Source: Uliginosibacterium gangwonense DSM 18521 (GTDB taxonomy: Bacteria; Pseudomonadota; Gammaproteobacteria; Burkholderiales; Rhodocyclaceae). From it: 64,000 nucleotides of DNA. The stretch spans positions 62,001 to 126,000 of the forward strand of contig NZ_KB892846.1 in the NCBI RefSeq assembly GCF_000373965.1. Direction: 5' to 3'. Positions 15,512 to 50,988 of the stretch are shown piece by piece; the stretch's first letter is position 1; each line of letters begins with the position of its first letter. The notes beneath the pieces are model-generated. The model saw only the letters and a list, made by a program, of their open reading frames with translations. It was not told where the DNA came from and ran no database searches. The translations under genes were made by a program, and so were the position numbers.

Positions 15512-15567
15512 TTAGGCATCAACCTTTCTTGCAAAAGAACAGGCCAGATCAGCACCGAATAACCGTT

Positions 15568-15594
15568 CTATCGTCATGGTTGATAAAAACTTGA
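15568..15594 (-). promoter_or_regulatory. Sigma-28 (FliA)-like promoter of MCP 2
   Basis: Read on the minus strand: TCAAGTTT (15594-15587), an 11-bp spacer, then GACGATAG (15575-15568). This matches the flagellar consensus TAAAGTTT-N11-GCCGATAA at 7 of 8 and 6 of 8 positions with the exact spacing. It lies a short leader upstream of the MCP 2 start, as expected for a FliA-dependent chemotaxis gene. Confidence 0.65.
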
Positions 15595-15628
15595 CCGTCA
15601 GGCTACACAAATCTCTTCGCCGCACCGC

Positions 15629-17245: not shown

Positions 17246-17305
17246 TATTCTGGAACCTTTCTGAGCAGCGCGTGGAGGGAGCGCACGTTGCACCGTCATG
17301 CAAGA

Positions 17306-29444: not shown

Positions 29445-30398
29445 ATGCTAGGCTCGCACCAAGAGGCTGTCTTTACGGCGCAAAATTTAACGTTGGAGGT
29501 GCTTGCCGTGGCTATTGAACCACTACTTGCATATTTTGAGAACTGGACTGGACGTCCGAGTATCTCGCGCCACTGCCTGGGCTTTGATGACCATGGGGCT
29601 GTTGGCTATTTCGGGGATTTTCAGCTTCGTAGTGCCTTTCAGCCTTTACACGATGCTGCTGGCAAACGCGTACCCAGCGCATTTGAGGCGCTTCTGCGGG
29701 TAACTGGTCCCTCTGGCGCCAATGTGCCGCCACACGTGGCATTCGGGCTACCACAGACTACCAGTGAGATCGTCTATTTCGACCGTTTGTGCCGCATGGT
29801 GCATGTGGTCAACTTCGTTACCCAATCAACCCGCTCCAGCAGCCGATTGTTTCTAAACGTGGATGGCAGACATCTGGCGAGCATCCGTAGCGGCGAGCAT
29901 GGTGGCGCGTTTGAAACACTGCTCCACCACGCGGGCCTGTCGCCACGCCGGGTGGTGCTGGAAGTGCTGGAATCCAGTGTGGATGATTTCGGCTTGCTGC
30001 AGGATGCAGTCAAAGCCTACCAATTGCGTGGATTCGGGGTAGCCATCGACGACTTTGGCGCACAGCATTCAAACTTCGACCGCCTTTGGCGCCTGGAGCC
30101 GGATATCGTCAAGTTGGATCGAAACATGAGCCTGGAAGCTGCCCGTAACCCACGGGCACGCAGGATTCTGCCTAAGCTGGTGGACATTCTTCATGACCTG
30201 GGTGCATGTGTAATCAGCGAGGGCATCGAAACCCATGAGCATTGGCAGATCGCCGAAAATGCCGGGGTCGATATGATCCAAGGCTTCCTGTTCTCACGAC
30301 CACAAAGCGAGTTACAAGAGTTCCTGGCAGGCCCCGCCACAAGCAAGCACTCAGAACCCATCAGCCCAGCCCGGCAAGCCGATATTTTGACCACCTAA
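29445..30398 (+). CDS. EAL-domain cyclic-di-GMP phosphodiesterase
   Basis: A 317-residue protein made almost wholly of one EAL domain, which hydrolyses cyclic di-GMP. The signature FEALLR carries the E-A-L triad. The other conserved positions are present: the Asn in FLNVDGRH, the Glu in VLEVLESS, the DDFG in AIDDFGAQHSN, the Lys-Asp in DIVKLDR, and SEGIETHEHW with the Gln in MIQGFLFSRP. It should therefore be active. No signal peptide, membrane segment or other sensor domain is seen. It lies 131 bp upstream of a binding protein and kinase-like gene on the same strand, suggesting a shared pathway. Confidence 0.9.
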   Translation: MLGSHQEAVFTAQNLTLEVLAVAIEPLLAYFENWTGRPSISRHCLGFDDHGAVGYFGDFQLRSAFQPLHDAAGKRVPSAFEALLRVTGPSGANVPPHVAFGLPQTTSEIVYFDRLCRMVHVVNFVTQSTRSSSRLFLNVDGRHLASIRSGEHGGAFETLLHHAGLSPRRVVLEVLESSVDDFGLLQDAVKAYQLRGFGVAIDDFGAQHSNFDRLWRLEPDIVKLDRNMSLEAARNPRARRILPKLVDILHDLGACVISEGIETHEHWQIAENAGVDMIQGFLFSRPQSELQEFLAGPATSKHSEPISPARQADILTT

Positions 30399-30529
30399 GT
30401 CTCACCTTGGAGCTTGCGCTGCTTCTTGCTGCCCTACCCGGACCATTCGGGCGTACCGTGTGCAGGAGCATACACAGAATGGATTAGACTCGTACCAGAT
30501 GTCTGCCTGTTCCTTACTCCGAGGTGAGC

Positions 30530-31705
30530 ATGATGTACCGCACAGACTGCACACAACGCAGGGGCCGTCGTATCCAGATCCTGACGTGGCTGGCCGCCGT
30601 ATGTTTATACATACTCGGCGCCCTGCTTGACCCTTCGCTTGCCCGTGCCACAGACCGTGGCGCTGACACCCTCATGCCGCTTTCCCTCCCCACCATGCTA
30701 CAGAAGGTTGCTGCGGCCAGCACCCATACGCCCCCCTGGGCAGGTCCCAGAACCGGGCCGGCGGGGGTCGCTGGCAAAACAATCGCCATCATGAGTGAAG
30801 ACCTGCGCAATGGTGGCATTCTTGGCGTGGCACGCGGGATTCAGGAAGCGGCCAAGGTTCTACAATGGAACGTCAAGGTCTTCGATGCTGGTGGAACGCC
30901 TGCCGGAAGAAATAAAGCCACCTCTGATGCACTGGCGGCACAGCCAGACGGCCTGATCGTCATAGGCGCAGACGCCAACGTCATGCAACCCCTGTTAGCC
31001 CCCTTTGTGCAACGAGGCATTCCTATCGTAGGCTGGCATGTGGGGCCTCAACCGGGTGTCATGGCTGGCAACGCCATTGCGATGAATGTCAGCACCGATC
31101 CGCTGGAAGTTGCACGCATCACCGCCATGGCGGCAGCCGTGGCCTCCAAAGGCCGGGCCAATGTGGTGATCTTCACGGATTCCAATTTCGAGATCGCCAT
31201 GACAAAGGCCAACGCCATGGCAGAGGTTATCCAGGCTTGCAAGGACTGTAACCTGCTGGAAATCCGCAATGTGGCCATATCCCAATGTGCCGAGCAGATG
31301 CCCGCCGTCACCCGGGAGTTACTCTCACACCACGGCAAAAAGTGGACCTACGCTTTGGCCATCAACGATATCTACTTTGATTATGCCGCGCCAGAACTCA
31401 CCAAGGCGGGTATTGCAGGCGAACGCATCAACTTCCTCTCCGCTGGTGATGGCAGTTCGGCAGCATTCATGCGCATCCAGGCTCACAGCTTCCAGATCGG
31501 TACGGTGGCGGAACCACTGAACCTGCACGGCTGGCAGCTAGTGGACGAATTGAATCGATTGCTCGCTCATCAGCCAGTCAGCGGCTATGTCATTCCGGTA
31601 CATCTGGTCACGGCAGACAATGTAGGCTTTGATGGTGGCCCTGCGTTCCAATACGATCCAGACAATGGCTATCGGGAGATTTATCGGCACCTCTGGAAAC
31701 GCTAG
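30530..31705 (+). CDS. Periplasmic sugar-binding-type protein (RbsB/LuxP-like)
   Basis: A 391-residue protein with an N-terminal basic stretch and hydrophobic segment (residues about 16-35, ILTWLAAVCLYILGALL), then a type-1 periplasmic binding fold of the Peripla_BP_4 group. Typical features are the opening strand KTIAIMSEDLRNGGILGVARG, DALAAQPDGLIVIGAD, VQRGIPIVGWHVG, and the late SAGDGSSAAFMRI. The start has GAGGTG upstream. There are no ABC permease or ATPase genes beside it; the next gene, 10 bp away, is a membrane kinase-like protein. The arrangement is that of a LuxP/LuxQ-type pair, where the binding protein is a receptor rather than a transporter. The ligand is unknown. Confidence 0.85.
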   Translation: MMYRTDCTQRRGRRIQILTWLAAVCLYILGALLDPSLARATDRGADTLMPLSLPTMLQKVAAASTHTPPWAGPRTGPAGVAGKTIAIMSEDLRNGGILGVARGIQEAAKVLQWNVKVFDAGGTPAGRNKATSDALAAQPDGLIVIGADANVMQPLLAPFVQRGIPIVGWHVGPQPGVMAGNAIAMNVSTDPLEVARITAMAAAVASKGRANVVIFTDSNFEIAMTKANAMAEVIQACKDCNLLEIRNVAISQCAEQMPAVTRELLSHHGKKWTYALAINDIYFDYAAPELTKAGIAGERINFLSAGDGSSAAFMRIQAHSFQIGTVAEPLNLHGWQLVDELNRLLAHQPVSGYVIPVHLVTADNVGFDGGPAFQYDPDNGYREIYRHLWKR

Positions 31706-31715
31706 TCCAGTCAAA

Positions 31716-33599
31716 ATGCCAATCCAATTTATCGGACACCTGCATTGGCCACGGTCCCTGCGCTGGCAATTCGCGCTGGTGTTGGCCGCCTTTGCTGTAC
31801 TGATCGTGGCAGGAAGTCTGGCGACCGTATACACGCTGCGTGTATCGGCTGACACAGCCCGGCAATTGGCAGAAAAAAGCCTGGTACGCATGCAGCAGGC
31901 GCGGGATCTTGTGCAAGAAAGCCTACTGATCGAACGGGAAACGTTACGCATGCTGGCAGCTGACTCACCGGCCGACGTGCGCACAAGCTATGCTAATACC
32001 ATCAAACAGCTGGACTCTCTTGATAGTCTGGTCACCCGCCTTGGTGAAGACAGGGCGGACGCAGTGGTGCTGTCGCTCCATCAGTCCAACCAGCTATTTC
32101 GCAATACCGTCCACATCATGGCGCAATTGCACGAAGGCACTCAACGGGCCAATACTGCATTCGATCAATCAGTACAAAAAAATATCCAAACTCTTCAGAA
32201 ATACTCTGATCCGGCAGCGCAAAAACTGATCGTACTGCTGTACCGTCTTGGAAAAGCAGACCACGCAACCGAAGTAGATGCCCTGCGTAATCAATTCATG
32301 CTCCAAGCCAGGAGCATTCACCCACTGCCTCAAACCGCCTATCAGGACCCACCCTCGGCCTCCGATGACACAAATGAGGCGCAAGCCCCCGCAAACCTGT
32401 CACCGTTTACCTTGCGCATCAAACTTATCCAGCAACAGGACAATCTGCGCCATTTCCGTGGAGAATTGCAACGTCAGGTCAGCACCATCGCCACGACCGC
32501 GCGGGAACTCTCTCAGCATTTTACAAACGATTATCATGAAACAGTCAAAATGCTGGACACCATTTCGCAACGTACCCAGTTCCTGGTGCTGGGCCTGCTG
32601 GGCGGTTGCCTAACGCTGGGTCTGTTGGTAGCCAGATACTTCATCGGCCGACACATTCTAGCCCGACTCCAGAAAATCAGCCAATATCTACAACAGAACC
32701 CTGCCACAGAAACCCAGGCACGCATCCCGGTGCAAGGCAGCGACGAAATTGGCAGCATGGCCCGCATAATCGAACAATTCACGCTGGAGCGGCGCCAGTT
32801 GGCTGACGCACAGCGTCAATTACTCCAGGCCGACAAAATGTCCTCCGTAGGCCAATTGGCAGGGGGCGTGGCAAACAAGATCAATGCCCCGGTCAATTAC
32901 GTCACGGCCAATCTCTCCACGCTGCGGGAGTATGCCAACAATCTTTTCAAGGTATTGGCCTTCTATGAAGCCAATGAAAACGAATTGCAGGAAAAAACCC
33001 GTTTTGCCATCAAGCGGATGAAGCGGGAAATCAATATCGATTTTCTGCACGATGACATGATCAGTCTACTCAGCCAGACTGAAGGCGGCTTACAGCAGGT
33101 CAAGAGCATTTTGCAGGATCTCAGGGACTTCTCGCACGGTGCCAACGCAGACAAGCAATGGGCGAATCTGGAACAGGTGCTTGACCACACTCTCAACATC
33201 ACCTCACACGAACTCAAACACAAGATAGAAGTGTTCAAGGAATATGCAGGCATCCCTGAAATCCAGTGCATCCCCTCGCGCCTGAATCAGGTCTTCATGA
33301 ACCTTCTGGTGAATGCAGCACACGCCATCGAAGGCTACGGCAAGATCACCTTGCGCACGGGTCTGCACGAAAACAATGTGTGGGCCGAGGTGGAAGACAA
33401 CGGCTGCGGAATACCGCCCGAGGTGCTCAGCCACATCTTTGATCCATTTGCCCCCAGCTCCACCAGCAAAGGTACTGGGTTTGGTCTACCGATGGCCTAT
33501 GACATCATCCAGCAACATGGTGGCACCATCACCGTGAAAAGCAAAGTCGGTACAGGCACAGTGTTTCGAGTCACGCTGCCGATCAAGACCGAGACCTGA
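31716..33599 (+). CDS. Histidine-kinase-like sensor lacking the phosphoacceptor His
   Basis: A 627-residue membrane sensor. TM1 is at residues about 17-40, a mainly helical periplasmic region at about 41-288, TM2 at about 289-309, HAMP at about 310-365, a dimerisation helix region, and a C-terminal HATPase domain. The H-box that should read like GVAHEINNP is GVANKINAP here: the phosphoacceptor His is Asn 387 and the next Glu is Lys. The ATPase motifs are kept: NQVFMNLLVNAAHAI, VEDNGCGIPP, and GTGFGLPMA. It may therefore bind ATP but cannot autophosphorylate in the usual way. It follows the periplasmic binding protein gene by 10 bp and probably receives its signal from it. Confidence 0.9.
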   Translation: MPIQFIGHLHWPRSLRWQFALVLAAFAVLIVAGSLATVYTLRVSADTARQLAEKSLVRMQQARDLVQESLLIERETLRMLAADSPADVRTSYANTIKQLDSLDSLVTRLGEDRADAVVLSLHQSNQLFRNTVHIMAQLHEGTQRANTAFDQSVQKNIQTLQKYSDPAAQKLIVLLYRLGKADHATEVDALRNQFMLQARSIHPLPQTAYQDPPSASDDTNEAQAPANLSPFTLRIKLIQQQDNLRHFRGELQRQVSTIATTARELSQHFTNDYHETVKMLDTISQRTQFLVLGLLGGCLTLGLLVARYFIGRHILARLQKISQYLQQNPATETQARIPVQGSDEIGSMARIIEQFTLERRQLADAQRQLLQADKMSSVGQLAGGVANKINAPVNYVTANLSTLREYANNLFKVLAFYEANENELQEKTRFAIKRMKREINIDFLHDDMISLLSQTEGGLQQVKSILQDLRDFSHGANADKQWANLEQVLDHTLNITSHELKHKIEVFKEYAGIPEIQCIPSRLNQVFMNLLVNAAHAIEGYGKITLRTGLHENNVWAEVEDNGCGIPPEVLSHIFDPFAPSSTSKGTGFGLPMAYDIIQQHGGTITVKSKVGTGTVFRVTLPIKTET

Positions 33600-33689
33600 A
33601 GCCCGTCCTCCGCCCACATGCAGAGAGGTTCCCAGGCGCAGAGATTGGTTCTACAATGGTGCATTACCTCCCTCCATTCGAGAATATCA

Positions 33690-34517
33690 GTGGTTCCTGT
33701 CTCTTTCGACCATATCCCCGACATCCGCTTGATTGCCTGCGACATGGATGGAACGCTGCTTGATGATGCGCACGCCATCCATGACGATTTCTGGCCCCTG
33801 GTGGAAGCCCTGCATGCACGTGGAATAAAATTCTGTCCAGCCAGTGGGCGTCAATACTACAATCTGGTGGAACGCTTCGGCCCGATTGCTGATACGCTGA
33901 CCTTCATTGCCGAGAACGGTACATTCGTCGTCGATGCAGGCAGAGAACTGAGTGCTGACTGCCTTACGCAGACTGTTGCTCATGAACTGGTGCGGGTGGC
34001 CCGCACCACCCACAGTGCGGGCGCCAATATCGGTGTTGTGCTTTGCGGCAAGCATTCTGCATACATCGAGCGTAGCGACGATGCCTTCTATCGGGAAGCC
34101 GCGCAGTATTATCACCGGTTAGCACAGGTGGAAGACCTGTGCGCAGTGGAAGACGAATTCCTCAAAGTTGCAATCTACGATTTTGTCTCTTCCGAGCAAT
34201 TCTCCGCCCCCGCCTTTGCCCACTTCGGTGCCACACATCAGGTGGTGATCTCGGGCCAGCATTGGCTGGATGTCATGGCGGCAGGCGTCAACAAGGGAAC
34301 CGCCATCAGGCATATTCAAGAGAGCTTACGGATCACCCCAGAGCAGACCATGGTCTTCGGCGACTTTCTCAACGATCTGGAAATGATGGATCAGGCCCGC
34401 TACTCCTTCGCCATGGCCAACGCCCATCCACTTCTCAAAGAACGCGCCAGATACCTCTCCCCCAGCAATACAGACAACGGTGTAGTGCGCACCATCAAAT
34501 CTGTGCTGAAAATCTGA
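33690..34517 (+). CDS. HAD-superfamily Cof-type phosphatase
   Basis: A 275-residue haloacid-dehalogenase-type hydrolase of the Cof/YbiV group, which dephosphorylates sugar phosphates or other small phosphoesters. Motif I with the nucleophile is CDMDGTLLDD near residue 17. Motif II is PASGR, the motif III Lys is in AGVNKGTAI, and motif IV is GDFLNDLEM (usually GDNxND). The cap domain lies between motifs II and III. I use the GTG at 33690; an ATG at 33618 would add 24 residues without family character. It follows the kinase-like gene on the same strand, 90 bp away. Confidence 0.85.
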   Translation: MVPVSFDHIPDIRLIACDMDGTLLDDAHAIHDDFWPLVEALHARGIKFCPASGRQYYNLVERFGPIADTLTFIAENGTFVVDAGRELSADCLTQTVAHELVRVARTTHSAGANIGVVLCGKHSAYIERSDDAFYREAAQYYHRLAQVEDLCAVEDEFLKVAIYDFVSSEQFSAPAFAHFGATHQVVISGQHWLDVMAAGVNKGTAIRHIQESLRITPEQTMVFGDFLNDLEMMDQARYSFAMANAHPLLKERARYLSPSNTDNGVVRTIKSVLKI

Positions 34518-34567: not shown

Positions 34568-35764
34568 CTATTGTGCGCTGACGATGGCTTTCGCCGCCTC
34601 ATCCAGCGCCTGATTGGGCCGCTTGCTCCCGGTCGTCATATCCACAAGCGCCTTGGACAACCCGGCCCAGAAGAATTGCATCTCTGGATTATTGGGCATG
34701 GGCTTGCCGGAATAGATGCCTTCCATGGCAGAGCGTACTTTGCCATCAGAATAAAATTCCCAGAACATTGTTTTGGAGGCAGGCACCCCGATCGGGCGAT
34801 CGGCATTCATGGTACGTAGCCCCTCCATCTTGAGCAAAGCCTGCTCAACAAAGGCCACCGCCGCATCGTGGTTCGGTGAACCATGTGGCAACATGGCCCC
34901 CAGCACTCCTACAAAGGGTCGTGCGGGCTGTCCAGCCACACTGGGCAGGGGCGCAATGCCAATATTGACCCCCGCCTTTTGCAAGCCCTCCCATGCCCAG
35001 GGGCCGGTGATCCACATCGCCTGCTTCTTATTCTTCATCGCCGTTTCGGCATCCGCGTAGCTCATGGCAGGCTCCAGCACACCTTCATGAATCATGCGAA
35101 CCAGTAGCTCCGCGCCCTTTTGCGCGCCCTGATTGTTGATGCCCGTCTGTTTACCCAGGTAGTTCCCCTGGATGTCACGGAAAAATGGATAACCTCCGTT
35201 GGCCGCCAGCATCGGCCAGGTAAAGTAAGGGCTTTGTGTTTCCCAACCGATAGCGCGTATGCCTTTGGGTTTTAAGCTGGCCTGGATGGCAGCAATCTGT
35301 TCAAAGCTCTTGGGCGGGGTTGCAATCAAATCCTTGTTATACACCAGTGAAACAGCCTCCACTGCAATCGGATACCCCCAGAGCTTGCCTTGCGAGGTGA
35401 AACCATCCCAGGCAATCTGCACAATCTGGGTGCGCAACTCATCGGAAGGCGTGACAGGTGTCAGATAAGCTTTGCGTACCCAGTCGCCAATGCGGTCATG
35501 CGGCCAGATCCAGATATCCGGCCCGTTGCCTGCCTTCATCGCGGCATCAAAAGCATCAGTAGCATGCTCGGGCGTTTCAACGATCACCTTGATGCCAGTT
35601 TTTCGTGTGTATTCATCCCCCAGCTTTTGCAGGCCCTTGTAGCCTTTGTCGCCGTTGATCCAGATGAGCAACTCCCCTTTCTTCCACGCTTGGGCGGGCG
35701 AAGGAAGAAGGGAAACAGCCAGAATTAAACCGCTTACAACCGATAACAGCAAACGCCTTTTCAC
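34568..35764 (-). CDS. Maltose/maltodextrin-binding protein, second copy
   Basis: A 398-residue periplasmic binding protein with a signal peptide (MKRRLLLSVVSGLILAVSLL ... AQA), GTG start at 35764 and AGGAGA seven bases upstream. The MalE signature is clear: [49 protein letters not shown] and ITGPWAWEGLQ. It is a paralogue of the malE product at 38560-39762 and is the last gene of the operon, separated from malG by 154 bp that hold a hairpin. It may bind other maltodextrins than the first copy, or allow separate expression; this is inference. Confidence 0.9.
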   Translation of the reverse strand: MKRRLLLSVVSGLILAVSLLPSPAQAWKKGELLIWINGDKGYKGLQKLGDEYTRKTGIKVIVETPEHATDAFDAAMKAGNGPDIWIWPHDRIGDWVRKAYLTPVTPSDELRTQIVQIAWDGFTSQGKLWGYPIAVEAVSLVYNKDLIATPPKSFEQIAAIQASLKPKGIRAIGWETQSPYFTWPMLAANGGYPFFRDIQGNYLGKQTGINNQGAQKGAELLVRMIHEGVLEPAMSYADAETAMKNKKQAMWITGPWAWEGLQKAGVNIGIAPLPSVAGQPARPFVGVLGAMLPHGSPNHDAAVAFVEQALLKMEGLRTMNADRPIGVPASKTMFWEFYSDGKVRSAMEGIYSGKPMPNNPEMQFFWAGLSKALVDMTTGSKRPNQALDEAAKAIVSAQ

Positions 35765-35885
35765 AATATGTCTCCTGTCTATTTATGGGTGTTGCGTGAA
35801 AATGCTGGCGCGAGTCTGGCTACGACGGGCGCAGGAATCCCCAAGGGCATTCAATGCCAAAAACATCAATCTGGGAAAACGGGGA

Positions 35886-35909
35886 GGGGCAGGACGAACG
35901 CCCTGCCCC
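35886..35909 (-). promoter_or_regulatory. Intercistronic hairpin between malG and second malE
   Basis: GGGGCAGG / CCTGCCCC arms with an 8-base loop, 10 bp past the malG stop. No clean T-run follows, so it may act as an attenuator or mRNA stabiliser rather than a full terminator. Confidence 0.5.
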
Positions 35910-35918
35910 GTATAGCGG

Positions 35919-36809
35919 TCAGCCCTTGACGCCGCCAGCCGTGAGGCCGGACACCAACCAGCGCTGCCCGAGGATGAAGACCATGGTGATGGGCAGGCCC
36001 GAGAGGATGGCCGCAGCCGCAAAATCGCCCCACAAATAGTTCTGCTGATACAAGTAGAGGCGGGAGCCCACCGCGAGGGTTAGGTTCTTTTCGTCGTGCA
36101 GCAGCACGGAGGCCACAGGCACTTCGATCATCGTGCCAATGAAAGAGAGCAGGAACACCACCACCAGAATCGGTACCGCCATCGGCAACAGCACATGCCA
36201 GAACGCCTGGAAGGGAGAAGCTCCGTCAACCTTGGCGGCTTCCTCCATCTCGGCAGGGATGGTCTCGAAGTAGCCCTTGATCGTCCATGCGTGCATGGCA
36301 ATCCCCCCACAATATGCCAATATCAATCCAGCGTGGGTATTGATCCCCATTTTGGGTACCGAGTCCCCCACCGTCTCAAAGATCGCATAAATCGCCACCA
36401 GCGAAAGCACGGCGGGGAACATCTGCATGAGCATCAGGGTATTGAGCGCAAAACTGCGCCCGGTAAAGCGCATGCGCGCAAAGGCATAGGCACTGGTGGT
36501 AGACAAAGCCAGCACCAGTAGCGCCGTCACCCCGGCAACCTTGACCGAGTTCCACAACCACAACAGCACCGGGAAAGGCGGATTGACGATGTGACCATCC
36601 GGCTTCACATACGGGATGCCCAGGGCGAGCTTCCAGTGCTCCAGCGTAACGTCAGTGGGGATAATGCTTCCCACCGCAAAGTTGCCGGGGCGCAGCGAAA
36701 TCGACAGCACCATCAGGAAGGGGAACACCGTCAGGGCGATAAATGCAACCAAGCCGATGTGTGCCGCCACCAAACGCCAGCGATGCGATTTGTCCAAAAC
36801 CATTGCCAT
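35919..36809 (-). CDS. malG: Maltose ABC transporter permease MalG
   Basis: A 296-residue inner-membrane permease with six hydrophobic segments. The ATPase-contacting EAA loop is [22 protein letters not shown] near residue 190. It forms the channel with MalF and is energised by MalK. The C-terminus ([11 protein letters not shown]) is typical of MalG. The start at 36809 has GAGGT eight bases upstream and lies 10 bp after the malF stop, so the two are co-translated. Confidence 0.93.
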
Positions 36810-36819
36810 GATGCAGACC

Positions 36820-38394
36820 TCAGGTATTGATCGGCTTGTCAGCCTTGGTCAGTCTGAGTTGCAACACAGACATGACCGCTACAAGCGCAAAAATGACGGT
36901 GGAAATCGCAGCAGCCAGCGCAAAATTTTGCCCGGAATCCACAAATGCGATTCGATAGGTATAGGACACCAGAATATCTGTTGAGCCTGCCGGCACCTTG
37001 GTATCCAGATAATCCGGGCCGCCTGCGGTCAGCAACGAGATCAGCACAAAGTTGTTAAAGTTGAAGGCAAACGAGGAGATCAGCAAGGGCATGATCGGCC
37101 GTGCAATCAGTGGCAAGGTGATCTTGAAGAAATTGGTCAATGGCCCAGACCCCACGATGGCAGAGGCTTCATACAGATCGCTGGGAATGGATTTGATCAA
37201 ACCCATACACAGCAACATCATATAAGGATAACCCAACCAGGTATTGACGATCAGGATCATGGCTTTGGCCAACCAGGGGTCGGAGAACCACGAAGGGCTG
37301 ATGCCAAACAAGCCGTTAAGGATCAGGTTGATTTCACCAAAGCTCTCATTGAACAGGCCACGGAACACCAATATGGAGATAAAGCCCGGCACCGCATAAG
37401 GCAAAAACAGCATGGTGCGATACACGGCACGGAAACGCAGCGCCTCCCAGTTCATCAGCACGGCCAGCACAATCCCGACGCCGAACGAAAACAGCACGCT
37501 GAGCAAGGCAAATACGTTGGTCCAGATGAAAATGCGCAGGAAAGGTTCTCGATATTTCGGGTCAGTAAAAATCTGGCGGAAATTCTCAAAACCAACCCCG
37601 ACCTTGAACCCCGGTGTCATTGTTTCACCGGTCTTCTGATTCACGTAGAATCCGAGCTTGAAGTCTGGCACCAACACATCGCCCGTGCGTTGATTGACGA
37701 GGTTCTTGCCCACCTGCTTATATAGGCTTTGCAGAGGCACGAAGCGACGCAACCCGGTCATCCCCAGCGTAACCCCATCAGGCAACACAACGGAAACGAG
37801 CTTGAGCCCCGGTTGCAGGGCAATCAATTCGCGTACCTGTAGAGCATCCGGTAGAGCCGTTTCGGCATTCTGCAACTCGGCCTTGAGCGATTGGGCTTTC
37901 TGCCCCTTGGCGGCCAAGGCAAACTCCGGACTGAGGTAGACCTTGCCGGTGGCTGCGTCTTCAAGACGGATGCGGTAATCCTGGGTCGGCGCCTTACCCA
38001 GCGCATGCAAGGTAAAAGCATATTCGACACCCTCTGTGGGCATCTTCTCTTCCAGCAGATAACGGGTTGAGCGCTCAAAGCTCAACAGATTGCGGGAACT
38101 ATAGTTTGTAAAACCGATACCGAACGTATAAACAATCGGCAACAGTACAAATATCAGTACCGCCACAATCCCAGGAAAGAGATAGCGGTAAACATAGGTT
38201 TTGGCTGAAGTAAACAACCATGTCGCCAGCATCAGCAGGCCGAGCAAGCCCACGGCGATCCAGGTCTGCCCCGCCACATAGGTCAGGGTGACAAGGTACA
38301 GCCCTGCCAGCAGCAGCACGATGCCAATCACAACGGGCATCCAGGTACGCAGGCGCAAACGCCAGGACCGTGGTGGCGGATCAATTTGAGTCAT
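36820..38394 (-). CDS. malF: Maltose ABC transporter permease MalF
   Basis: A 524-residue permease. It has three N-terminal membrane segments, then a large periplasmic loop (about residues 95-260, with [20 protein letters not shown]) as in enterobacterial MalF, which contacts the binding protein. The rest forms the core with an EAA-type loop ([21 protein letters not shown]). The length and the big loop identify MalF rather than a generic sugar permease. The start at ATG 38394 lacks a good ribosome-binding site; a longer frame to 38556 exists but has no conserved content. Confidence 0.93.
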
Positions 38395-38483
38395 GGAATT
38401 CAATCTATACTCCAGAGCTGGGCTTTCTCCATCACAGCCAGCAGTGCACGCTGTGTGCCTCACTTGGAGAAAACCTTTATTGA

Positions 38484-38513
38484 TGCAGCCCTTGCCACAA
38501 GACAGGGGCTGCA
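38484..38513 (-). promoter_or_regulatory. Intercistronic hairpin between malE and malF
   Basis: TGCAGCCC (38484-38491) can pair with GGGCTGCA (38506-38513), 47 bp past the malE stop. As in other mal operons, a hairpin here would raise malE mRNA relative to the permease genes. Confidence 0.5.
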
Positions 38514-38559
38514 TCTCTACACTACCACTCCACCCGCCTACGCGGATGGAATACAAGGA

Positions 38560-39762
38560 TCAATTCTTGATCCGGTCAGCCGCCTTGTTCAAACCTTCCT
38601 TGGCCGTTTCGCGCTCCTGGGTGATGTTTTGCAAGGCAGTCGCCATGGACGACCAGAACTTGCCCATCTCCGGATTCGAAGGCATCGGCGCCCCTGCTTG
38701 TGCGCTCTGCATCGTGGCCTGGATCAAGGGGTTGCTCTTGAGTTCAGCATAGAAAGCCTTGTTGGCAGGCACACCCAGCGGCTTGTCAGCATCGATTTCC
38801 TTGAGACCCTTGACCGACAGCATGTAATTCTCGATGAACTCGACCGCTACGTCCTTGTTCGGGCTGGACTTGTTGATCATCGCCCCCAGCACGCCCACAA
38901 ATGGCGCCCCACCCTTCTTGCCCACCGCAGGAATCGGCGCCACACCAAAATTGATGTTCTTGTCGCGCAGGTTGCCCCACGACCACGGGCCATTGATCAT
39001 CATCGCCACCTTGCCTTGGGCAACACCGGCCTCCATGTCGGAATAGCTGGCCGTCTTGGGCATTGCACCTGCCTTGATGAGCTTGACGAGCGTTTCTACA
39101 CCTTGCACAGCACCTGCATTGTTAACCCCAACATCCTTGGCGTCATACGAGCCATCCGCCTTGAGCTTGAAGGCATAACCACCGTTGGCTGCCAGCATGC
39201 CCCATGTGAAATAGGTATTGGTGAAGTCCCACAAAATGGCATGCTTGCCATCTTTTTGCAGCTTCTTGTCCAGCGCGATCACTTCATCAAAAGTCTTGGG
39301 CGGGGTTGGCACCAGGGTCTTGTTATAGACCAGCGCCACAGCTTCAATGGAGATAGGGTAGCCCCACACCTTGCCATTGGTGGTAAAGGCCTTCCAGGCC
39401 AGCGGATCGATACCATCCTTGACAGCCTTGCCGGGATTCACGGTTTCCAACAAACCACCCTGAATCCATTCGCCGATACGGTCGTGCGGCCAAATCCAGA
39501 TATCCGGCCCCTTGCCTGCTGCTGCGGCTTGCTGGAACTTGCTGGGGGCATCTTCGGGATGCTCCACCTTCACTTCGATACCGGTCTTCTTGGCGAATTC
39601 ATCGCCCACTTTTTGCAGGCCGTTATAGCCTTTGTCACCATTGATCCAGATGAGCAGCTTGCCCGGTTCACCTGCAAAGGCACTGAGCGGGAAGGCGGCA
39701 GCCACGGCCAGCGCGAGACCCGAAACCATCAGCTTGCCAATATGACGACGTGTTGTTTTCAT
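38560..39762 (-). CDS. malE: Maltose/maltodextrin-binding protein MalE
   Basis: A 400-residue periplasmic binding protein for maltose or maltodextrins. The signal peptide is [20 protein letters not shown] ... AFA, and ATG 39762 has GGAGGAG six bases upstream, the strongest site in the operon. Family segments are [58 protein letters not shown] and [12 protein letters not shown]. It lies between malK and malF and delivers sugar to MalFGK2. Confidence 0.95.
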
Positions 39763-39828
39763 CTATTGCTCCTCCATGATTGATTTGAAGACCCTTGGTG
39801 GGCCATTGCAGCCTTGGCGTGGCCCGAC

Positions 39829-40962
<1,134 letters not shown>

Positions 40963-41039
40963 GTTGTCTCCTGATTCTTGACTGTAACTACGCACTCGTT
41001 CTCAGGGCATCTCGCAGCCAGGCTGCTTGCCCCACTGAT

Positions 41040-42707
41040 TCAATCTGCCGCAGCAAGGGGCTTGCCAAAGAAACCGCTCCAGGCTGGCAGCACCAGCTTT
41101 GTCTGCGCATCGCACACGTCGATCTCGGCCCCGCCCAACCCATGCCCGGTCAAGGCTGCCAAAGGCATGGGCACCACATATTCAACCGCCTCTGGCGACA
41201 AATTGAAGGCACAGAACACCTCCTGGCGATCCATACTACGCATAAAGCATAGTACAGAATCCGGCGATGTCATGAAGCGGATATCCCCCTTGGCCAGCAC
41301 TGGCAGGTTGCGCCGCCAAGCCAGGAAACCACGGTAGAAATTCAGTACCGAATCGGGCTGTGCCGCCTGTGCATCCACAGCCTGTACCTGGTGCGCCTGG
41401 GGGATCGGCAACCATGGCTCATGCGTGGAAAACCCCGCGCCTTCGCCCTGCACAGTCCAAGGCATGGGCGTGCGACAACCATCCCGCCCTTTGTAATCGG
41501 GCCAGAATGCGATGCCATACGGATCGCGCAGGCGATCGAAGGGGACTTCGGCATCTTCCAGCCCCAACTCTTCGCCTTGATACACACAGAAACTACCGCG
41601 CAGGCTACCAATCACAGCGAACAGTAGCTTGGCAAATGCGGCCTTTTCAGCAGGCGTCTTGAGCATATGCCCCCAACGCGTCATCACCCGTTGTGCGTCG
41701 TGATTAGAGAAGGCCCAGCAGCCCCAACCTTTGACCGGGTTGATGCGTGCTTCGAAATTCTCAACCTCGGTGCGGATATGTTCGGCGGAAAACGCGTCGG
41801 TCAGGAAGGTAAAACTGTAGGCCATGTGCAATTTATCGCCGTGAGCCGTGTATTCCGCCATCACCCGCACGCCGTCCTCATCGCCAATCTCTCCTACGCT
41901 GGCAACCTTGTACTCATCCAACAGCACGCGCAGGCGTTTGAGGAAGGCCAGATTCTGTGCTTGCGTCTTGTCGTAGGCATGAATTTGCATGCCATATGGA
42001 TTGTTCTGCGGAATGGCGGTACGCACCTCTCCATCCATCAGGAACGGGGGGTTGTTGCGCAACTCCTTGTCATGGAAATGAAAATTGCAGGCATCGAAAC
42101 GGAAACCATCCACCCCACGCTTGCACCAGAAGCGTACCGTTTCGAGCATCGCATCCTGCACGGCAGGATTGTAAAAATTCAGATCCGGCTGCGAAGTCAG
42201 GAAATTGTGCAGGTAATACTGGCAGCGCCGTGAATCCCATTGCCACGCCACCCCGCCAAACACCGAAAGCCAATTATTGGGGGGTGAGCCATCGGGCTTG
42301 GGGTCTTGCCATACATACCAATCGGCATAGGGATTGTCTCGCCCCTGGCGGCTTTGCTTGAACCAGGGGTGGGCTTCAGAGGTGTGTGAAAGAACCTGGT
42401 CAATCACCACCTTCAAACCCAATTCATGGGCACGCGTCACGAGCGCATCGAAATCAGCCAAGCTGCCGAACAGCGGATCGACATCGCAGTAATCGGAAAC
42501 GTCGTAGCCAAAATCCTTCATCGGCGAGCGGAAGAAAGGCGAAATCCAGATCGCATCCACCCCCAACGCCGCCACATAGGGTAGGCGCGCAATGATGCCG
42601 GGCAGATCCCCCACGCCATCCTTGTTGCTATCGCAAAAGCTGCGCGGATAGATTTGATAAATGGATGCGCCACGCCACCACTCGTCTCTTTGTACCGAAA
42701 CTGACAC
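41040..42707 (-). CDS. Alpha-glucosidase, GH13 family
   Basis: A 555-residue cytoplasmic enzyme of glycoside hydrolase family 13 that releases glucose from maltose or short maltodextrins. The catalytic nucleophile Asp is in GFRFDACNFHF, the acid/base Glu in ASVGEIGDED, and the third Asp in FSNHDAQR. Opening motifs IYQIYPRSFCDSNKDGVGDL and DAIWISPFFRSPMKDFGYD are typical. I place the start at GTG 42707 (GGAGA five bases upstream). The longer frame to ATG 42791 would run across the LacI operator and promoter. It is the first gene of the mal operon, so imported sugar is split at once. Confidence 0.92.
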   Translation of the reverse strand: MSVSVQRDEWWRGASIYQIYPRSFCDSNKDGVGDLPGIIARLPYVAALGVDAIWISPFFRSPMKDFGYDVSDYCDVDPLFGSLADFDALVTRAHELGLKVVIDQVLSHTSEAHPWFKQSRQGRDNPYADWYVWQDPKPDGSPPNNWLSVFGGVAWQWDSRRCQYYLHNFLTSQPDLNFYNPAVQDAMLETVRFWCKRGVDGFRFDACNFHFHDKELRNNPPFLMDGEVRTAIPQNNPYGMQIHAYDKTQAQNLAFLKRLRVLLDEYKVASVGEIGDEDGVRVMAEYTAHGDKLHMAYSFTFLTDAFSAEHIRTEVENFEARINPVKGWGCWAFSNHDAQRVMTRWGHMLKTPAEKAAFAKLLFAVIGSLRGSFCVYQGEELGLEDAEVPFDRLRDPYGIAFWPDYKGRDGCRTPMPWTVQGEGAGFSTHEPWLPIPQAHQVQAVDAQAAQPDSVLNFYRGFLAWRRNLPVLAKGDIRFMTSPDSVLCFMRSMDRQEVFCAFNLSPEAVEYVVPMPLAALTGHGLGGAEIDVCDAQTKLVLPAWSGFFGKPLAAAD

Positions 42708-42746
42708 CACTGTCTCCAATGATCCGTTCGAAGCGGATGCGTTATG

Positions 42747-42764
42747 TTTGTAACCGGTTACAAA
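42747..42764. promoter_or_regulatory. LacI-family operator before the mal operon
   Basis: A perfect 18-bp palindrome, TTTGTAACC/GGTTACAAA, centred 48 bp upstream of the alpha-glucosidase start. It has the central CG and symmetry typical of LacI-family sites. Nearly the same palindrome lies before the LacI-family gene 2 kb away. Confidence 0.85.
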
Positions 42765-42767
42765 GTT

Positions 42768-42791
42768 AAGTTCTTGCGCGAAGACTGTCAA
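42768..42791 (-). promoter_or_regulatory. Promoter of the mal operon
   Basis: A perfect -35 TTGACA on minus (42791-42786). The -10 at 17 bp is weak and abuts the operator, so a bound repressor would cover it. The weak -10 makes exact placement uncertain. Confidence 0.5.
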
Positions 42792-43014
42792 TACCTCTGA
42801 TGTATACCCCTACACTATTTCGCAAAATAGTTGATTCAACTCTTTCTTACAAGCCACAGGCGTTTACATCTGGCAAATGTGTTCCTGCCCAACTACCAAT
42901 CAATTACACATCCTGAACCTGTTTCACGATCTGTAAAACAGATTCCAAGGATGACAGGCTTTACCCCCTATTCCGTCATTTCGCCGGAAGCCCTCAGTCA
43001 GGAGGAAGACTGAA

Positions 43015-43737
43015 ATGAAATTCTGGATCAAATTGGGAAGCGTGCTGGGTCTGATCTCGATTTGTTTTGGGGCGTTTGCAGAATCCCCCACACTCACCAT
43101 GGGCGTATTCAGTTGGGAACCTTATGTCAGTACGAATCCGGAACATTACGGCGTTATTTCTGAGATTGCGATCACGGCATTGGAGCGAACAGGTTACAAG
43201 ATCGAGGTTCATGACTACCCGTTTTCACGGGTCATGAAAAACCTGGAGTTCGGCATCATCGACATCGCTCCGGCCATTTCTCCCAATACGGAACGAGCCA
43301 AGACCGTCGATTTCTCCTCCCCCATCTATAACGTGGAAATGGGTTTCACCTTCAAAAAAGGCCGAATACATTACCAGACAATTTCTGATCTCAAAGCTTA
43401 CACGGCTGGCGTCATGCTCGGAACATTCTGGATCAACGAGCTAACTTCAGCAGGTATCCTTTACGAGGGGGCCGCCGAGCAGGAGCAAAACATCAGGAAG
43501 CTGATCCTCGACCGGGTAGACTTTGTCTGCATGCCCAAGGGTGTCGCCTGGCATCTGCTGACACAAATGGGTGAAGACCCGAACAACTATGAATTCGGGC
43601 TATTCAAGCATGAGGGCCAACCACTCGGTATATCGAAAAGAACCCCATTCAAAACGTTGCGTGAGGATTTTGAACGAGGGCTCGCCAGCATCAAACGGGA
43701 TGGAACCTATGACAAAATTGTGGCGAAATACAAATAG
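43015..43737 (+). CDS. Periplasmic solute-binding protein, SBP_bac_3 type
   Basis: A 240-residue exported protein with signal peptide (MKFWIKLGSVLGLISICFGAFA) and AGGAGG nine bases upstream. The mature part is a family-3 extracellular solute-binding domain: LTMGVFSWEPYV, a GVISEIAITALERTGY helix, and ISPNTERAKTVDFSSPIY, where the Arg usually holds the ligand carboxylate. It ends with ASIKRDGTYDKIVAKY. Members bind amino acids or related compounds. No permease or ATPase is adjacent, so it may work with a distant transporter or as a receptor. It sits between the mal operon and its regulator but on the other strand. Confidence 0.85.
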   Translation: MKFWIKLGSVLGLISICFGAFAESPTLTMGVFSWEPYVSTNPEHYGVISEIAITALERTGYKIEVHDYPFSRVMKNLEFGIIDIAPAISPNTERAKTVDFSSPIYNVEMGFTFKKGRIHYQTISDLKAYTAGVMLGTFWINELTSAGILYEGAAEQEQNIRKLILDRVDFVCMPKGVAWHLLTQMGEDPNNYEFGLFKHEGQPLGISKRTPFKTLREDFERGLASIKRDGTYDKIVAKYK

Positions 43738-43785
43738 CCCGCCTCACCCCTGCTGATACAAAAATCTCCCCACGTTGAACCACTT

Positions 43786-44760
43786 TCAATGCTCGCCGCC
43801 CGGCGCCAAAGCAATACTCCCCCCTTCATGCAGATAGACGGGCACCAACACCTGGCGCGGGGGTTTCTTGTCGATGGCCTCAAGCACCAGCGATACCGAC
43901 TCATGGGCAATCTGCGGAATGTCCTGAGCCACGGAAGCCAAGCCCGGTTGCAGCTCTGCCGCCAAACCATCGAAGCCCATCACGGACATTGCCTCCGGCA
44001 CACGCACGCCAAGGTCTTGCAAAGCGCCGTAGGCACCTACGGCCATCTCGTCGGTGGCACAGAAGACCCCCGTGGGACGTTGCCCGGCGAGCCAGGCGTC
44101 TCGCATCAGGCGATAGCCGCCCAGCACAGAGGACTCGCCATGCACCTGCACGAAGGAGATTTGCTCCATGCCAAACGCCTTCAGGCCCTGTACGAAACCG
44201 TCCGCTCGGTCGGCATGCCACTGGGCTTCACCCAGCACACTCAGATGCAGCAATCGGCGGTGCCCCAATCCCAACAGCGTTTGCGCAGCCAGGCGCCCAC
44301 CCCCGATGTCATCAGGAGCTACGCAGGATACGCCAGGGAAGTGGCCGATCAGCACGGCAGGCAAATCACGTTCGGCCAGAAAACGCATCCGCTCTTCCAC
44401 ATGCGAGGTGTTGAACACCAACACCGCATTGAGCGGGCGACGCCACGTAGAAAGATCGGCAGGCAACTCAATGAACTGGATGGCGCGTTCCTGCATCTCG
44501 CGCACGAGTGCACGCCACACCACATTGAAATATGGCGAGAGGCGGTTTTCACCATAGCCCACCCACATTCCAATAGCATATTTCGAGCGCATTGACAGCT
44601 CCCGTGCTACCGGATCAGGCGCATAGCCAAGTTGCTCCATAACCTCCAGCACTTTGACCCGGGTTGCCTTTGCCACAGTGCTGTGACCATTGATAACCCG
44701 GCTCACAGTACCCGTCGACACCTGGGCCTGAGCAGCAATCTCGCTGATGGTGATTTTCAA
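43786..44760 (-). CDS. LacI-family repressor of the mal operon
   Basis: A 324-residue transcription factor. The N-terminal helix-turn-helix is ISEIAAQAQVSTGTVSRVIN, with the hinge helix near PDPVARELS. A sugar-binding core follows, ending VMGFDGLAAELQPGLASV. The start is TTG 44760, supported by AGAGGTGG just upstream and by the HTH beginning at residue 3. A palindromic operator lies 22-37 bp upstream of its own start and a matching one precedes the mal operon. It therefore most likely represses both, released by a maltodextrin or its breakdown product. Confidence 0.93.
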   Translation of the reverse strand: MKITISEIAAQAQVSTGTVSRVINGHSTVAKATRVKVLEVMEQLGYAPDPVARELSMRSKYAIGMWVGYGENRLSPYFNVVWRALVREMQERAIQFIELPADLSTWRRPLNAVLVFNTSHVEERMRFLAERDLPAVLIGHFPGVSCVAPDDIGGGRLAAQTLLGLGHRRLLHLSVLGEAQWHADRADGFVQGLKAFGMEQISFVQVHGESSVLGGYRLMRDAWLAGQRPTGVFCATDEMAVGAYGALQDLGVRVPEAMSVMGFDGLAAELQPGLASVAQDIPQIAHESVSLVLEAIDKKPPRQVLVPVYLHEGGSIALAPGGEH

Positions 44761-45123: not shown

Positions 45124-48100
45124 GTGCCCTCCACAACGACTCTTGCACCTTCACCCCAGCCTCGGCCACCGTTGAGCCAGACAAAGGCTGTACTTTTGTA
45201 CGGCCTATTCCTGGTCGCCTGGATTCTGGCCCCCAATACCCTGCTGCTCCCCCAATTGCGCAGTAACCTGCTCACCTGGAGCATGCTGCTCCTTCAAGGC
45301 ATGGGATGCCTCGCCATGTCAGCGGTACAACTCCATGAACTGGCAAAAAATGCAGCGCCCCCTGCAGCCCCCCCTTCCGAGGCAGCAAGCAAGCCTCCCG
45401 CTTGGCAGGCATGGCCGCACTGGCCTCTGCTGGGGATCACACTGCTCCCTGTGCTGATTGGCAGCACCGCCCAAGGCGCCGCACTCCTATGGCCCAGCCT
45501 TGCCACCATGATGGGCTGCCTATGCATCCACGCAACACTATGGCTGGCCTGGCAAAAACAGTTGGAGAACACCCATCTGGTAAAAGATATCGCCAGCAAC
45601 CAATTGCTCAAGCACTTCTACGACCTACCGTTTGCCGGCATGGCAACCTGCTCACTCAATGGGCGAAAACTGCAGCACTGCAATGACAAGCTCTGCGAAA
45701 TCGTGGGCTACTCGCAAGAGGAATTGATCAATCTGGACTGGACCGAAATCAGCCACCCCGACGATGTGGCGAAGGAAGTCGAAGCATTCCAGAAGATTCT
45801 GCAGGGTCAAACCAATGGCTATAGCCAGGAAAAGCGCTTCATCCGCAAAGGCGGAGAGATCGTTTATGCCACAATAGATGTCCATGGCATCTACAACCCA
45901 GATGGTTCTCTACAATGCGTGGCTGCATTGGTGCATGACATCACCGAACAAAAGCGCATCACGCAACAACTGCTCGACAGCGAACAGAGCTACCACACGC
46001 TGGCTGACTCGGCCCCCGCACTGATCTGGACCTCCGGGCCTGACAAGCTCTGCAACTACTTCAACAAGGTCTGGTTGAACTTCACCGGCCGCTCGCTCGA
46101 ACAAGAACTTGGCAACGGTTGGGCAGAAGGCGTCCACCCAGACGATTTTGCATACTGCCTGGAATATTACCTGAGCCACTTCGATCAACGTCTCAACTTC
46201 AACATGGATTACAGGTTGCGCCATCACAGTGGGGAATACCGCTGGATACGCGACAGCGGCTGCCCGCGCTACAGCCGTTCTGGCACATTCCTGGGCTATA
46301 TCGGCTACTGCCTGGATGTAACTGATCGCGTCCTGGCACAAAAGGCACTGGAAGAAAGCGAGGCACGACTTCGTACCATTGTGCGCAACCTGCCCATGGT
46401 TCTTTGCACAATAGACAAGAATGGCATATTCACCATGTCGGACGGCAACGGCCTCAAGGCCCTGGGCCTCAAGCCAGGAGAAGTCGTGGGGCAATCCGTC
46501 TACACGCTATACGCCAGCCACCCGGAAATCCTCAAATATATCAATCTGGCAATGTCTGGCGAACAGATTCGCGGCCAGACAACCATCAACAACATTCTTT
46601 ACGACAGCATATATTGCCCTATCCCCGGCATTGAAAGCACCTCTGGCGTCATGATCACCAGTCTGGATATTACAGAACGCAGAAACGCAGAAACCGAACA
46701 GCAGCGCAACATGGCACGGATCGAAAGCCTACTGCGCGTCGCCAATTTCCATGCACGCAATGCACAACATTTGCTCGACTACATCCTGCACCAAGCGGTT
46801 GAACTGAGCCAAAGCACAGCAGGCTGCATTTTCATCCGAGACAAGAATCACTTTACCCTCAGCAATATAACCGAAGAGGCTGATAACGCATTTGTCATCC
46901 CTGCACAGAAGATTCATTACACGCTTGAAGACATGGTCTACTTCCACGAGGCCATCCTTCAAGGCACTCCCATCATTCGCAATGCGACAAATGGCTGGCA
47001 GACAAAAGCGACGTCTTCGACGGACATCATCCAGCTGCTGAGCCGCCATCTATGCATTCCTTTGAGGGCCAACGGCACAACTCAAGCAATCCTGGTGCTT
47101 GCCAACAAACTTGGCAACTATGAAAAAGCGGACGCCACCCAGCTTACACAGTTCATGATCAGTGCATGGAACATGGTTGAGCAGCGTCAAGCCGAAGATC
47201 AGTTTGTACGCATCTCCGATTTGCTGAACATCTCGCAAAAACTGGCACACGTGGGAGGCTGGGATTTCAACCCGCATGACAACTCACTGTATTGGACCGA
47301 TGAGAACTACCGGATTTTTGAAATACCGCCAGAAAACTACGAGCCCAAGCTTGATAGTACGCTTGCCTTTTTTACCCCCGAATCGCGTGCCCGCAGGGAT
47401 ATCGCATTTGCCACGGCCATGGCCGAGGGCACGGGATTCGACCTTGAACTGGAACTGGATACCGCACAAGGCAATAGGCGCCAGATCCGCGCCACCTGCG
47501 TCGTCGTCAAAAATGGCGATACGATAGACCGCATCATCGGTGCTTTGTTGGACATCACCCCCTACAAAACCATCGAAGCAGAATTACGCAAGCATAAAGA
47601 GAATCTGGAGGAACTTGTCACCCAACGCACGCAGGAACTCATGCAGGCACTGGATACAGCCGAACGCGCCACCCGTGGCAAGAGTGCCTTTCTTGCCACC
47701 ATGAGCCATGAAATCCGCACGCCGATCACCGCCGTGCTGGGCATGACGCATCTGGCCTTACAAACCAATCCAACGCCGAAACAAAAAGGCTATCTCGAAA
47801 AAATATCCATCTCGGCCAATCTGCTGCTCGGCATCATCAACGACATCCTCGATTTCTCAAAAATCGAGGCAGGCCGATTGGAGCTGAGTTCAAGTGAATT
47901 CGTACTGGCCGACGTCCTGGACAAAATCATCACCGTCATCAGCCTAAAAGCAGCAGAAAAGAAACTGGAGTTTCTCGTCAAGATTGAACAGGACACGCCC
48001 TATACCCTTATAGGCGATGCCACACGACTGGGGCAGATCCTGCTCAATCTGTGTTCAAATGCAGTGAAGTTCACCGATCAGGGCGAAATTATTCTTGAAA

Positions 48101-50975: not shown

Positions 50976-50988
50976 GTGAGACTTTGCC

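What the first reader, a model, noticed from the sequence alone, without database searches (positions are those of the whole stretch)
31716..33599. Sensor kinase with Asn in place of the phosphoacceptor histidine
Seen: the H-box position, normally GVAHEINNP in this kinase group, reads GVANKINAP; codon AAC at 32874-32876 encodes Asn 387, followed by Lys. The nucleotide-binding motifs (N box, DNGCGIPP, GTGFGL) are intact, the frame is unbroken for 627 codons, and both TM segments and the periplasmic domain are present, so this is not simple decay. Inference: it is a pseudokinase that binds ATP and signals allosterically, or pairs with another kinase.
Basis: partly seen in the sequence, partly recalled or inferred. 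Interest (0 to 1): 0.7.

Follow-up and report, generated by a model that had tools for sequence, protein, structure and literature searches.

The report
Sugar sensor with dead kinase core
A bacterial membrane sensor of a type that normally reports a signal by phosphorylating itself has, in this genome, lost the amino acids needed for that chemistry while keeping its sensing half normal, so it probably signals by touching other proteins; such pseudokinases are uncommon but already known.

Summary
Codon 32874-32876 is AAC and the H box reads GVAN387-K388-I-N-A391-P in an unbroken 627-codon gene. The ATP lid is also degenerate, so 'nucleotide motifs intact' is only partly right. Pfam HisKA, found in 6 of 6 PBP-linked orthologues, is not detected here.

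The gene starts 10 bases after a sugar-binding-type periplasmic protein (PBP). The pair occurs in 6 other genomes of a 395-genome family sample, always with His; 33 of 33 core homologues examined have His. The Asn-Lys form is thus derived and seen only here. PBP and sensor evolve at a normal rate; the core is about twofold fast. No stop is present where whole-gene neutral drift predicts about seven.

Best reading: a pseudo-histidine kinase, DivL/RetS-like in logic, that senses and signals by contact. Known kind: 0.9% of HisKA domains lack the His (PMC12632262). Partner and output are unproven; relaxed decay is the main rival.

The parts
31716..33599 (+). Pseudo-histidine kinase gene, 627 aa (TM - periplasmic helical sensor - TM - HAMP - DHp-like - HATPase); TM segments read by eye
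31716..32639 (+). N-terminal sensor part (residues 1-308), mainly long helices in the model; homologous to that of 6 PBP-linked orthologues
32640..32780 (+). HAMP linker, residues 309-355
   Evidence: Pfam PF00672 E 1e-5
32790..33140 (+). DHp-like helical segment, residues about 359-475; no Pfam HisKA match listed at E 10
   Evidence: HisKA found in 6 of 6 orthologues
32862..32891 (+). H-box remnant, residues 383-392, G-G-V-A-N387-K388-I-N-A391-P
33273..33587 (+). HATPase_c domain, residues 520-624; N box and G1 kept
   Evidence: Pfam PF02518 E 6.6e-26
33450..33491 (+). Degenerate F-box/ATP lid up to G2, residues 579-592 (APSS-TSKGTGFGLP against family FTTKPVGKGTGLGLS)
30524..31705 (+). Periplasmic binding protein gene, 393 aa, fold of ribose/sugar-binding proteins; ends 10 bases before the kinase; the conserved partner
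   Evidence: Pfam PF13407 E 3.7e-20
29445..30398 (+). EAL-domain gene upstream in the same direction, 125 bases before the PBP; functional link only suspected
   Evidence: Pfam PF00563 E 9.5e-41; not beside the PBP-kinase pair in the 6 orthologous loci

Best explanation
This is a pseudo-histidine kinase that descends from a His-bearing, PBP-coupled sensor kinase. Shown by sequence: the PBP-sensor pair is conserved; the kinase core has lost the phosphoacceptor, the kinase-specific acidic residue and the phosphatase-specific Asn/Thr, and its ATP lid is degenerate; the frame is intact. Inferred: a sugar-like ligand is bound by the PBP, the PBP docks on the helical periplasmic domain, the state passes through HAMP to the DHp/CA core, and the core, unable to phosphorylate or dephosphorylate, signals by contact: it binds a response regulator or forms mixed dimers with another sensor kinase and shifts that partner's activity, as reported for DivL and RetS. 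I put catalytic death at about 0.93 and the contact-based output at about 0.6.
For: H387N, E388K, N391A together; in HisKA proteins the acidic residue is needed for kinase and the Thr/Asn for phosphatase activity (PMC3510030, abstract). Pfam HisKA not listed for the query at E 10, present in 6 of 6 orthologues. Lid changes T580P, T581S, K582S, G584S and a one-residue deletion. Core orthology: query with L012, L013, L060 at 96/89 support, end branch 1.54 against 0.07-0.5 for those three. Only the core is accelerated: Tajima counts query:L060 with outgroup L051 are PBP 30:31, sensor 28:25, HAMP 8:6, core 35:17 (p 0.013); core 47-54:16-24 with five other outgroups. ORF kept: mean 7 stops expected under whole-gene neutrality, none in 0.7% of 300 runs. 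H box plus lid 15 of 36 conserved columns changed, against 1 of 21 in N box, G1 and C-terminal strands.
Against: No partner kinase or response regulator was found; by reading of the ORFs no RR gene lies next to the pair. The regional contrast (Fisher p 0.0025) uses regions chosen after seeing the changes, and a permutation test of adjacent changes shows no clustering (5 pairs, mean 5.07, p 0.63). If only the core drifted, 6% of 1000 simulations lack a stop. Among the five orthologues compared, L051 breaks more core columns (39 of 120) than the query (27 of 108) though it has the His; its core is of another branch. The Asn-Lys form is seen in one genome only. dS to the nearest orthologues is saturated. 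The simulations use point substitutions only and start from the present sequence.
Confidence: 0.6

Rival explanations
1. Relaxed decay: the kinase lost its role in this lineage (for example its response regulator was lost), and the core is eroding slowly before becoming a pseudogene; it has no current signalling output.
For: Core dN roughly doubled on the query branch (my arithmetic); 20 of 75 conserved columns broken; no adjacent RR by ORF reading; the PBP partner is absent from 7 of 7 congeners searched, so the system is dispensable in the genus; core-only neutrality leaves no stop in 6% of 1000 simulations, and changed columns are not clustered by adjacency.
Against: No stop or frameshift in 627 codons where about 7 stops are expected if the whole gene drifted; N box, G1 and C-terminal strands almost unchanged (1 of 21); normal codon-position GC, GC3 0.67 in the core; PBP and sensor at normal rate.
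Confidence: 0.28
2. Half-site kinase: in a mixed dimer with a His-bearing paralogue, this subunit supplies only its ATP-binding domain and phosphorylates the partner's His.
For: N and G1 boxes kept; two own-genome paralogues with similar cores and His exist (L002 43%, L003 45%).
Against: The ATP lid that such catalysis needs (established knowledge, recalled) is degenerate and short. Heterodimerisation untested.
Confidence: 0.06
3. Phosphatase-only sensor: it removes phosphate from a response regulator phosphorylated by others.
For: The His is not essential for HisKA phosphatase activity, though it contributes (PMC12632262, section 6).
Against: The Thr/Asn required for HisKA phosphatase activity (PMC3510030, abstract) is Ala391 here.
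Confidence: 0.04
4. Sequencing or assembly error at the His codon.
For: Only one genome carries the form.
Against: Twenty conserved positions differ, three of them catalytic and in the H box by at least four base changes, and one codon is missing in the lid, with no frame damage.
Confidence: 0.02

Closest known systems
DivL (Caulobacter pseudo-histidine kinase)
   Same: Non-His residue at the phosphoacceptor site, HK fold kept, neither kinase nor phosphatase activity, weak binding of an ATP analogue (PMC4211667, passages); DivL structure 4q20 is among the Foldseek matches of the model.
   Different: DivL has Tyr at the site, PAS sensors and known partners (DivK~P, CckA); the window protein has Asn-Lys, a periplasmic helical sensor coupled to a PBP, and no known partner.
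RetS (Pseudomonas)
   Same: A sensor kinase unable to autophosphorylate that inhibits another kinase (GacS), one of its three mechanisms being core-core contact (PMC5992135, passages).
   Different: RetS keeps its H box with HExxT and phosphatase activity and lacks the G boxes; the window protein has lost the H box and keeps N and G1 boxes. RetS is a hybrid with receiver domains; the window protein is not.
PBP-coupled sensor kinases such as TorT-TorS, LuxP-LuxQ, XylFII-LytS (pairings recalled; XylFII 5xss is among the Foldseek hits of the PBP)
   Same: A periplasmic binding protein gene next to a membrane sensor kinase.
   Different: No TorT, TorS, LuxP or LuxQ chain is among the sequence hits of PBP or sensor to solved structures, or named among those of the whole kinase. 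That those kinases have the His is recalled.
Orthologous PBP-kinase pairs in G083, G170, G230, G144, G225, G259
   Same: PBP 56-68% identical, sensor part 35-49% identical.
   Different: All six have the His; G144 has another core, and G225 and G259 carry hybrid cores with a receiver domain.

Membership tests
HisKA-type histidine kinase (Pfam PF00512 + PF02518) | Phosphoacceptor His in the H box | tested here: not met
   Asn387; His in 33 of 33 core homologues
HisKA-type histidine kinase (Pfam PF00512 + PF02518) | Match to the HisKA profile | tested here: not met
   none listed at E 10, though HMMER's filters drop most matches above about 0.1; 6 of 6 orthologues match, L051 exactly at the cut-off
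HisKA-type histidine kinase (Pfam PF00512 + PF02518) | HATPase_c domain | tested here: met
   E 6.6e-26, 91.4 bits
HisKA-type histidine kinase (Pfam PF00512 + PF02518) | Intact ATP lid | tested here: not met
   6 of 13 conserved columns changed in F-box/lid/G2, one residue missing
Pseudo-histidine kinase | HK fold and homology with catalytic residues lost | tested here: met
   H387N, E388K, N391A; HATPase_c; kinase-core matches of the model, pTM only 0.42
Pseudo-histidine kinase | No autokinase activity, yet a signalling role | not testable with these tools
   needs biochemistry and genetics
Pseudo-histidine kinase | Gene kept under selection rather than decaying | tested here: inconclusive
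   intact ORF against simulation, but core-only neutrality not excluded
PBP-coupled sensor kinase | PBP gene adjacent and conserved with the sensor | tested here: met
   pair in the window and 6 other genomes
TorT/TorS | Sequence relation of PBP and sensor to TorT and TorS | tested here: not met
   no TorT or TorS chain among the hits; the TorS model TIGR02956 scores 110 bits against a cut-off of 676.5, best stretch in the kinase core
T2SS_HK subfamily NF038348 | Curated cut-off 450 bits | tested here: not met
   263.3 bits; orthologues L049 390.6, L060 349.9, also below

The most novel reading that the evidence does not exclude
A membrane pseudokinase coupled to a sugar-binding-type PBP in which all three DHp chemistries (autokinase, phosphotransfer, phosphatase) were lost after the sensor was established, turning a PBP-kinase system into a phosphorylation-free ligand reporter that acts by contact, possibly on cyclic-di-GMP turnover through the neighbouring EAL protein (the orthologous pair in G225 is followed by a receiver-HD-domain gene).
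Probability: 0.2. Interest if true: 0.65.

Novelty: new member of a known kind. Interest (0 to 1): 0.38.

Why it matters
About 0.9% of HisKA domains lack the His (722 of 76,471; PMC12632262, section 6), but to my knowledge few such proteins have been studied in depth. This case gives a before-and-after comparison: the same PBP and sensor drive a His-bearing core in related genera and a core without it here. That makes it a usable system for asking what a sensor kinase can still do without phosphoryl chemistry.

Tried and rejected
Looked for the Asn-Lys form in relatives: none in the 33 core homologues and 6 PBP-linked orthologues examined (four of the six, L049/L012, L050/L013, L051/L018 and L060, are also among the 33). 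The 33 come mostly from the up-to-30 best loci saved from a 150-genome family sample in which 72 genomes had a match at E 1e-60, so most matches of that search were not read, and it is no random sample.

Looked for the locus in the genus: no PBP match at E 1e-60 in any of 7 congeners. The kinase search (E 1e-100) is too strict to count as evidence: the true orthologues elsewhere score about 3e-92 or weaker.

Order and class searches with the PBP gave 1 further hit in 399 genomes and 2 in 369, the window's own genome included in each total; by reading the ORF list these PBPs lie among transporter genes. Four weaker PBP hits (G014, G123, G128, G149; 36-40% identity) were fetched as L069-L072 and not analysed.

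EAL-PBP-kinase as a conserved unit: not supported. EAL is not beside the pair in the six orthologous loci (one 31% EAL match about 5 kb away in L050), and the 64% EAL relative in G001 has no PBP or kinase of the window within the 19 kb fetched. Promoter and terminator scan: counts near the shuffle mean. Relation to TorT/TorS by sequence: none found. Clustering of changed columns by adjacency: none. The genome-contig scan gave one distant kinase (34%). A first H-box pattern was wrongly written and found only the query; one search replaced it and read the H boxes by alignment. Literature searches; the listings showed no paper on this protein; two searches returned nothing.

Full report
What is there. 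The window holds a 627-codon gene at 31716-33599 (+), ATG to TGA without a break. By layout it is a membrane sensor kinase: HAMP at residues 309-355 (Pfam E 1e-5) and HATPase_c at 520-624 (E 6.6e-26), but no HisKA match listed at E 10. The AlphaFold2 model (22-sequence alignment, mean pLDDT 78.5, pTM only 0.42, so domain placement is unsure) shows a long-helix N-terminal half, DHp-like helices between 366 and 473 and the mixed alpha/beta ATPase fold. Its top Foldseek matches are kinase cores of ZraS, HK853 and YycG; DivL (4q20) is also listed. The H box reads GVAN387-K388-I-N390-A391-P, codons AAC, AAG, (Ile), AAT, GCC.

Context. Ten bases upstream ends a 393-aa periplasmic binding protein gene (30524-31705, Peripla_BP_4 E 3.7e-20). 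The top Foldseek matches of its model are ribose- and other sugar-binding proteins, with weak profile hits to the same class (best E 0.0054). Before it lies an EAL-domain gene (29445-30398). After the kinase comes a HAD-like gene (33618-34517; type read by eye, not tested).

Relatives. With the PBP as bait, 7 of 395 family genomes, the window's own included, have a match at E 1e-90, in 5 of 68 genera: G000, G083, G170, G230, G144, G259 and G225. In all six others a kinase with the same sensor lies beside it. Four plain kinases (G083, G170, G230, G144) and two hybrid kinases with a receiver (G259, G225) all carry the His and match Pfam HisKA (G144 exactly at the cut-off of 26.9 bits). So one sensor module has been joined to at least three kinds of core. 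In the genus, 7 of 7 congeners have no PBP match at E 1e-60.

The change is derived. I aligned the query core (residues 359-627) with 33 homologous cores: paralogues L002 and L003 of the same genome, 30 cores from loci L012-L040 (saved best matches of a 150-genome family search), and the G230 orthologue. All 33 have His at the site. In a maximum-likelihood tree the query groups with the orthologous cores of G083, G170 and G230 (96/89 support; its place within the four is weak, 92/35) on an end branch of 1.54, against 0.07-0.5 for these three. The program warns that such long rows are placed unsurely. The core of G144 lies elsewhere and is longer still (2.18).

What is lost. The query breaks 20 of 75 columns conserved at 95% or more; of the other 33, 31 break 0-3, L060 8 and L018 (G144) 11. 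Broken columns include H387N, E388K and N391A. In HisKA proteins the acidic residue next to the His is needed for kinase and the Thr/Asn four places after the His for phosphatase activity (PMC3510030, abstract). The lid region has T580P, T581S, K582S, G584S, L589F, S592P and one missing residue. By region: H-box helix 9 of 23, rest of DHp 4 of 13, N box 1 of 9, G1 0 of 4, F-box/lid/G2 6 of 13, C-terminal strands 0 of 8. H box plus lid against N box, G1 and C-terminal strands is 15 of 36 against 1 of 21 (Fisher p 0.0025), but these regions were chosen after seeing the data, and a test of adjacent changes shows no clustering (p 0.63).

Decay or reuse. Among the seven PBP-linked orthologues the query is not unusual in the PBP (7 of 151 otherwise invariant columns changed; others 0-17) or the sensor with HAMP (9 of 51; others 0-13). 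In the core, among the five plain kinases, it breaks 27 of 108; L051 breaks more, 39 of 120, having another core; L049, L050 and L060 break 2-5. Relative-rate counts (query:L060, outgroup L051) are even for PBP (30:31), sensor (28:25) and HAMP (8:6), uneven for the core (35:17, p 0.013); against L049 the core is 41:16 (p 0.0009). With five other outgroups the core counts are 47-54:16-24 against L060 and 50-61:16-24 against L049, each p 0.0025 or less. From pairwise dN I compute a query-branch core dN of about 0.24 against 0.12 for L049 and L060; dS is saturated. Neutral drift of the whole gene far enough to change 18 conserved sites leaves a mean of 7 stops, none in 0.7% of 300 runs; drift of the core alone leaves 2.8, none in 6% of 1000 runs. 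GC by codon position in the core is 0.56/0.36/0.67. I conclude that the PBP-sensor half is under normal constraint, the core under changed or relaxed constraint, and that the frame is probably, not certainly, kept by selection.

How it most likely works. Shown: conserved PBP partner, normal sensor, dead H box, degenerate lid, kept frame. Inferred: ligand-bound PBP sets the state of the helical periplasmic domain; HAMP passes it on; the core presents or hides a surface for a response regulator or another kinase. Precedents: DivL, which lacks kinase and phosphatase activity and binds DivK~P (PMC4211667, passages); RetS, which lowers GacS signalling, partly by inhibiting its autophosphorylation (PMC5992135, passages); and the ChrS pseudokinase of evolved C. 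glutamicum, whose effect depends on the paralogous kinase HrrS, although a mixed dimer was seen only for the native ChrS (PMC9491836, passages). Candidate partners are unknown; L002 and L003 are the closest cores in the genome (43% and 45%). A cyclic-di-GMP output is only a hint: an EAL gene upstream here, a receiver-HD gene behind the G225 pair.

Novelty. Missing His in HisKA domains is put at 0.9% (722 of 76,471) in PMC12632262 (section 6 read), so this is a new member of a known kind. Less usual is the loss of all three DHp functions in one lineage while a dedicated binding protein stays constrained. The literature searches were made; their listings showed no paper on this protein.

Noticed in passing
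L049, L050, L051, L060, L061, L062: The same PBP plus helical sensor is joined to at least three kinds of kinase core in related genera: the plain core of G083/G170/G230, a different plain core (G144) and hybrid cores with a receiver (G259, G225).
   Followed up: partly
32150-32440 approximately (residues about 145-240): A stretch of the periplasmic domain of roughly 90 residues is present in the window protein and in G230 (L060) but largely missing in the other five orthologues (alignment).
   Followed up: no
45124-52560: A 1589-aa PAS-like protein with HATPase and receiver matches, a receiver-HD gene and another receiver protein: a second signalling cluster about 11 kb downstream.
   Followed up: partly
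34568-44760: By reading of the ORFs: two maltose-type binding proteins, permeases, an ABC ATPase, an alpha-glucosidase-like enzyme and a LacI-type regulator, a sugar uptake locus beside the PBP-kinase pair.
   Followed up: no
11838-17299: Three tandem, similar chemoreceptor-like genes on the minus strand (by reading of the ORFs).
   Followed up: no
L085 (G004:C47), about 1020-1628: The congener's relative of the EAL gene has three in-frame stops in the matched stretch; only described.
   Followed up: no
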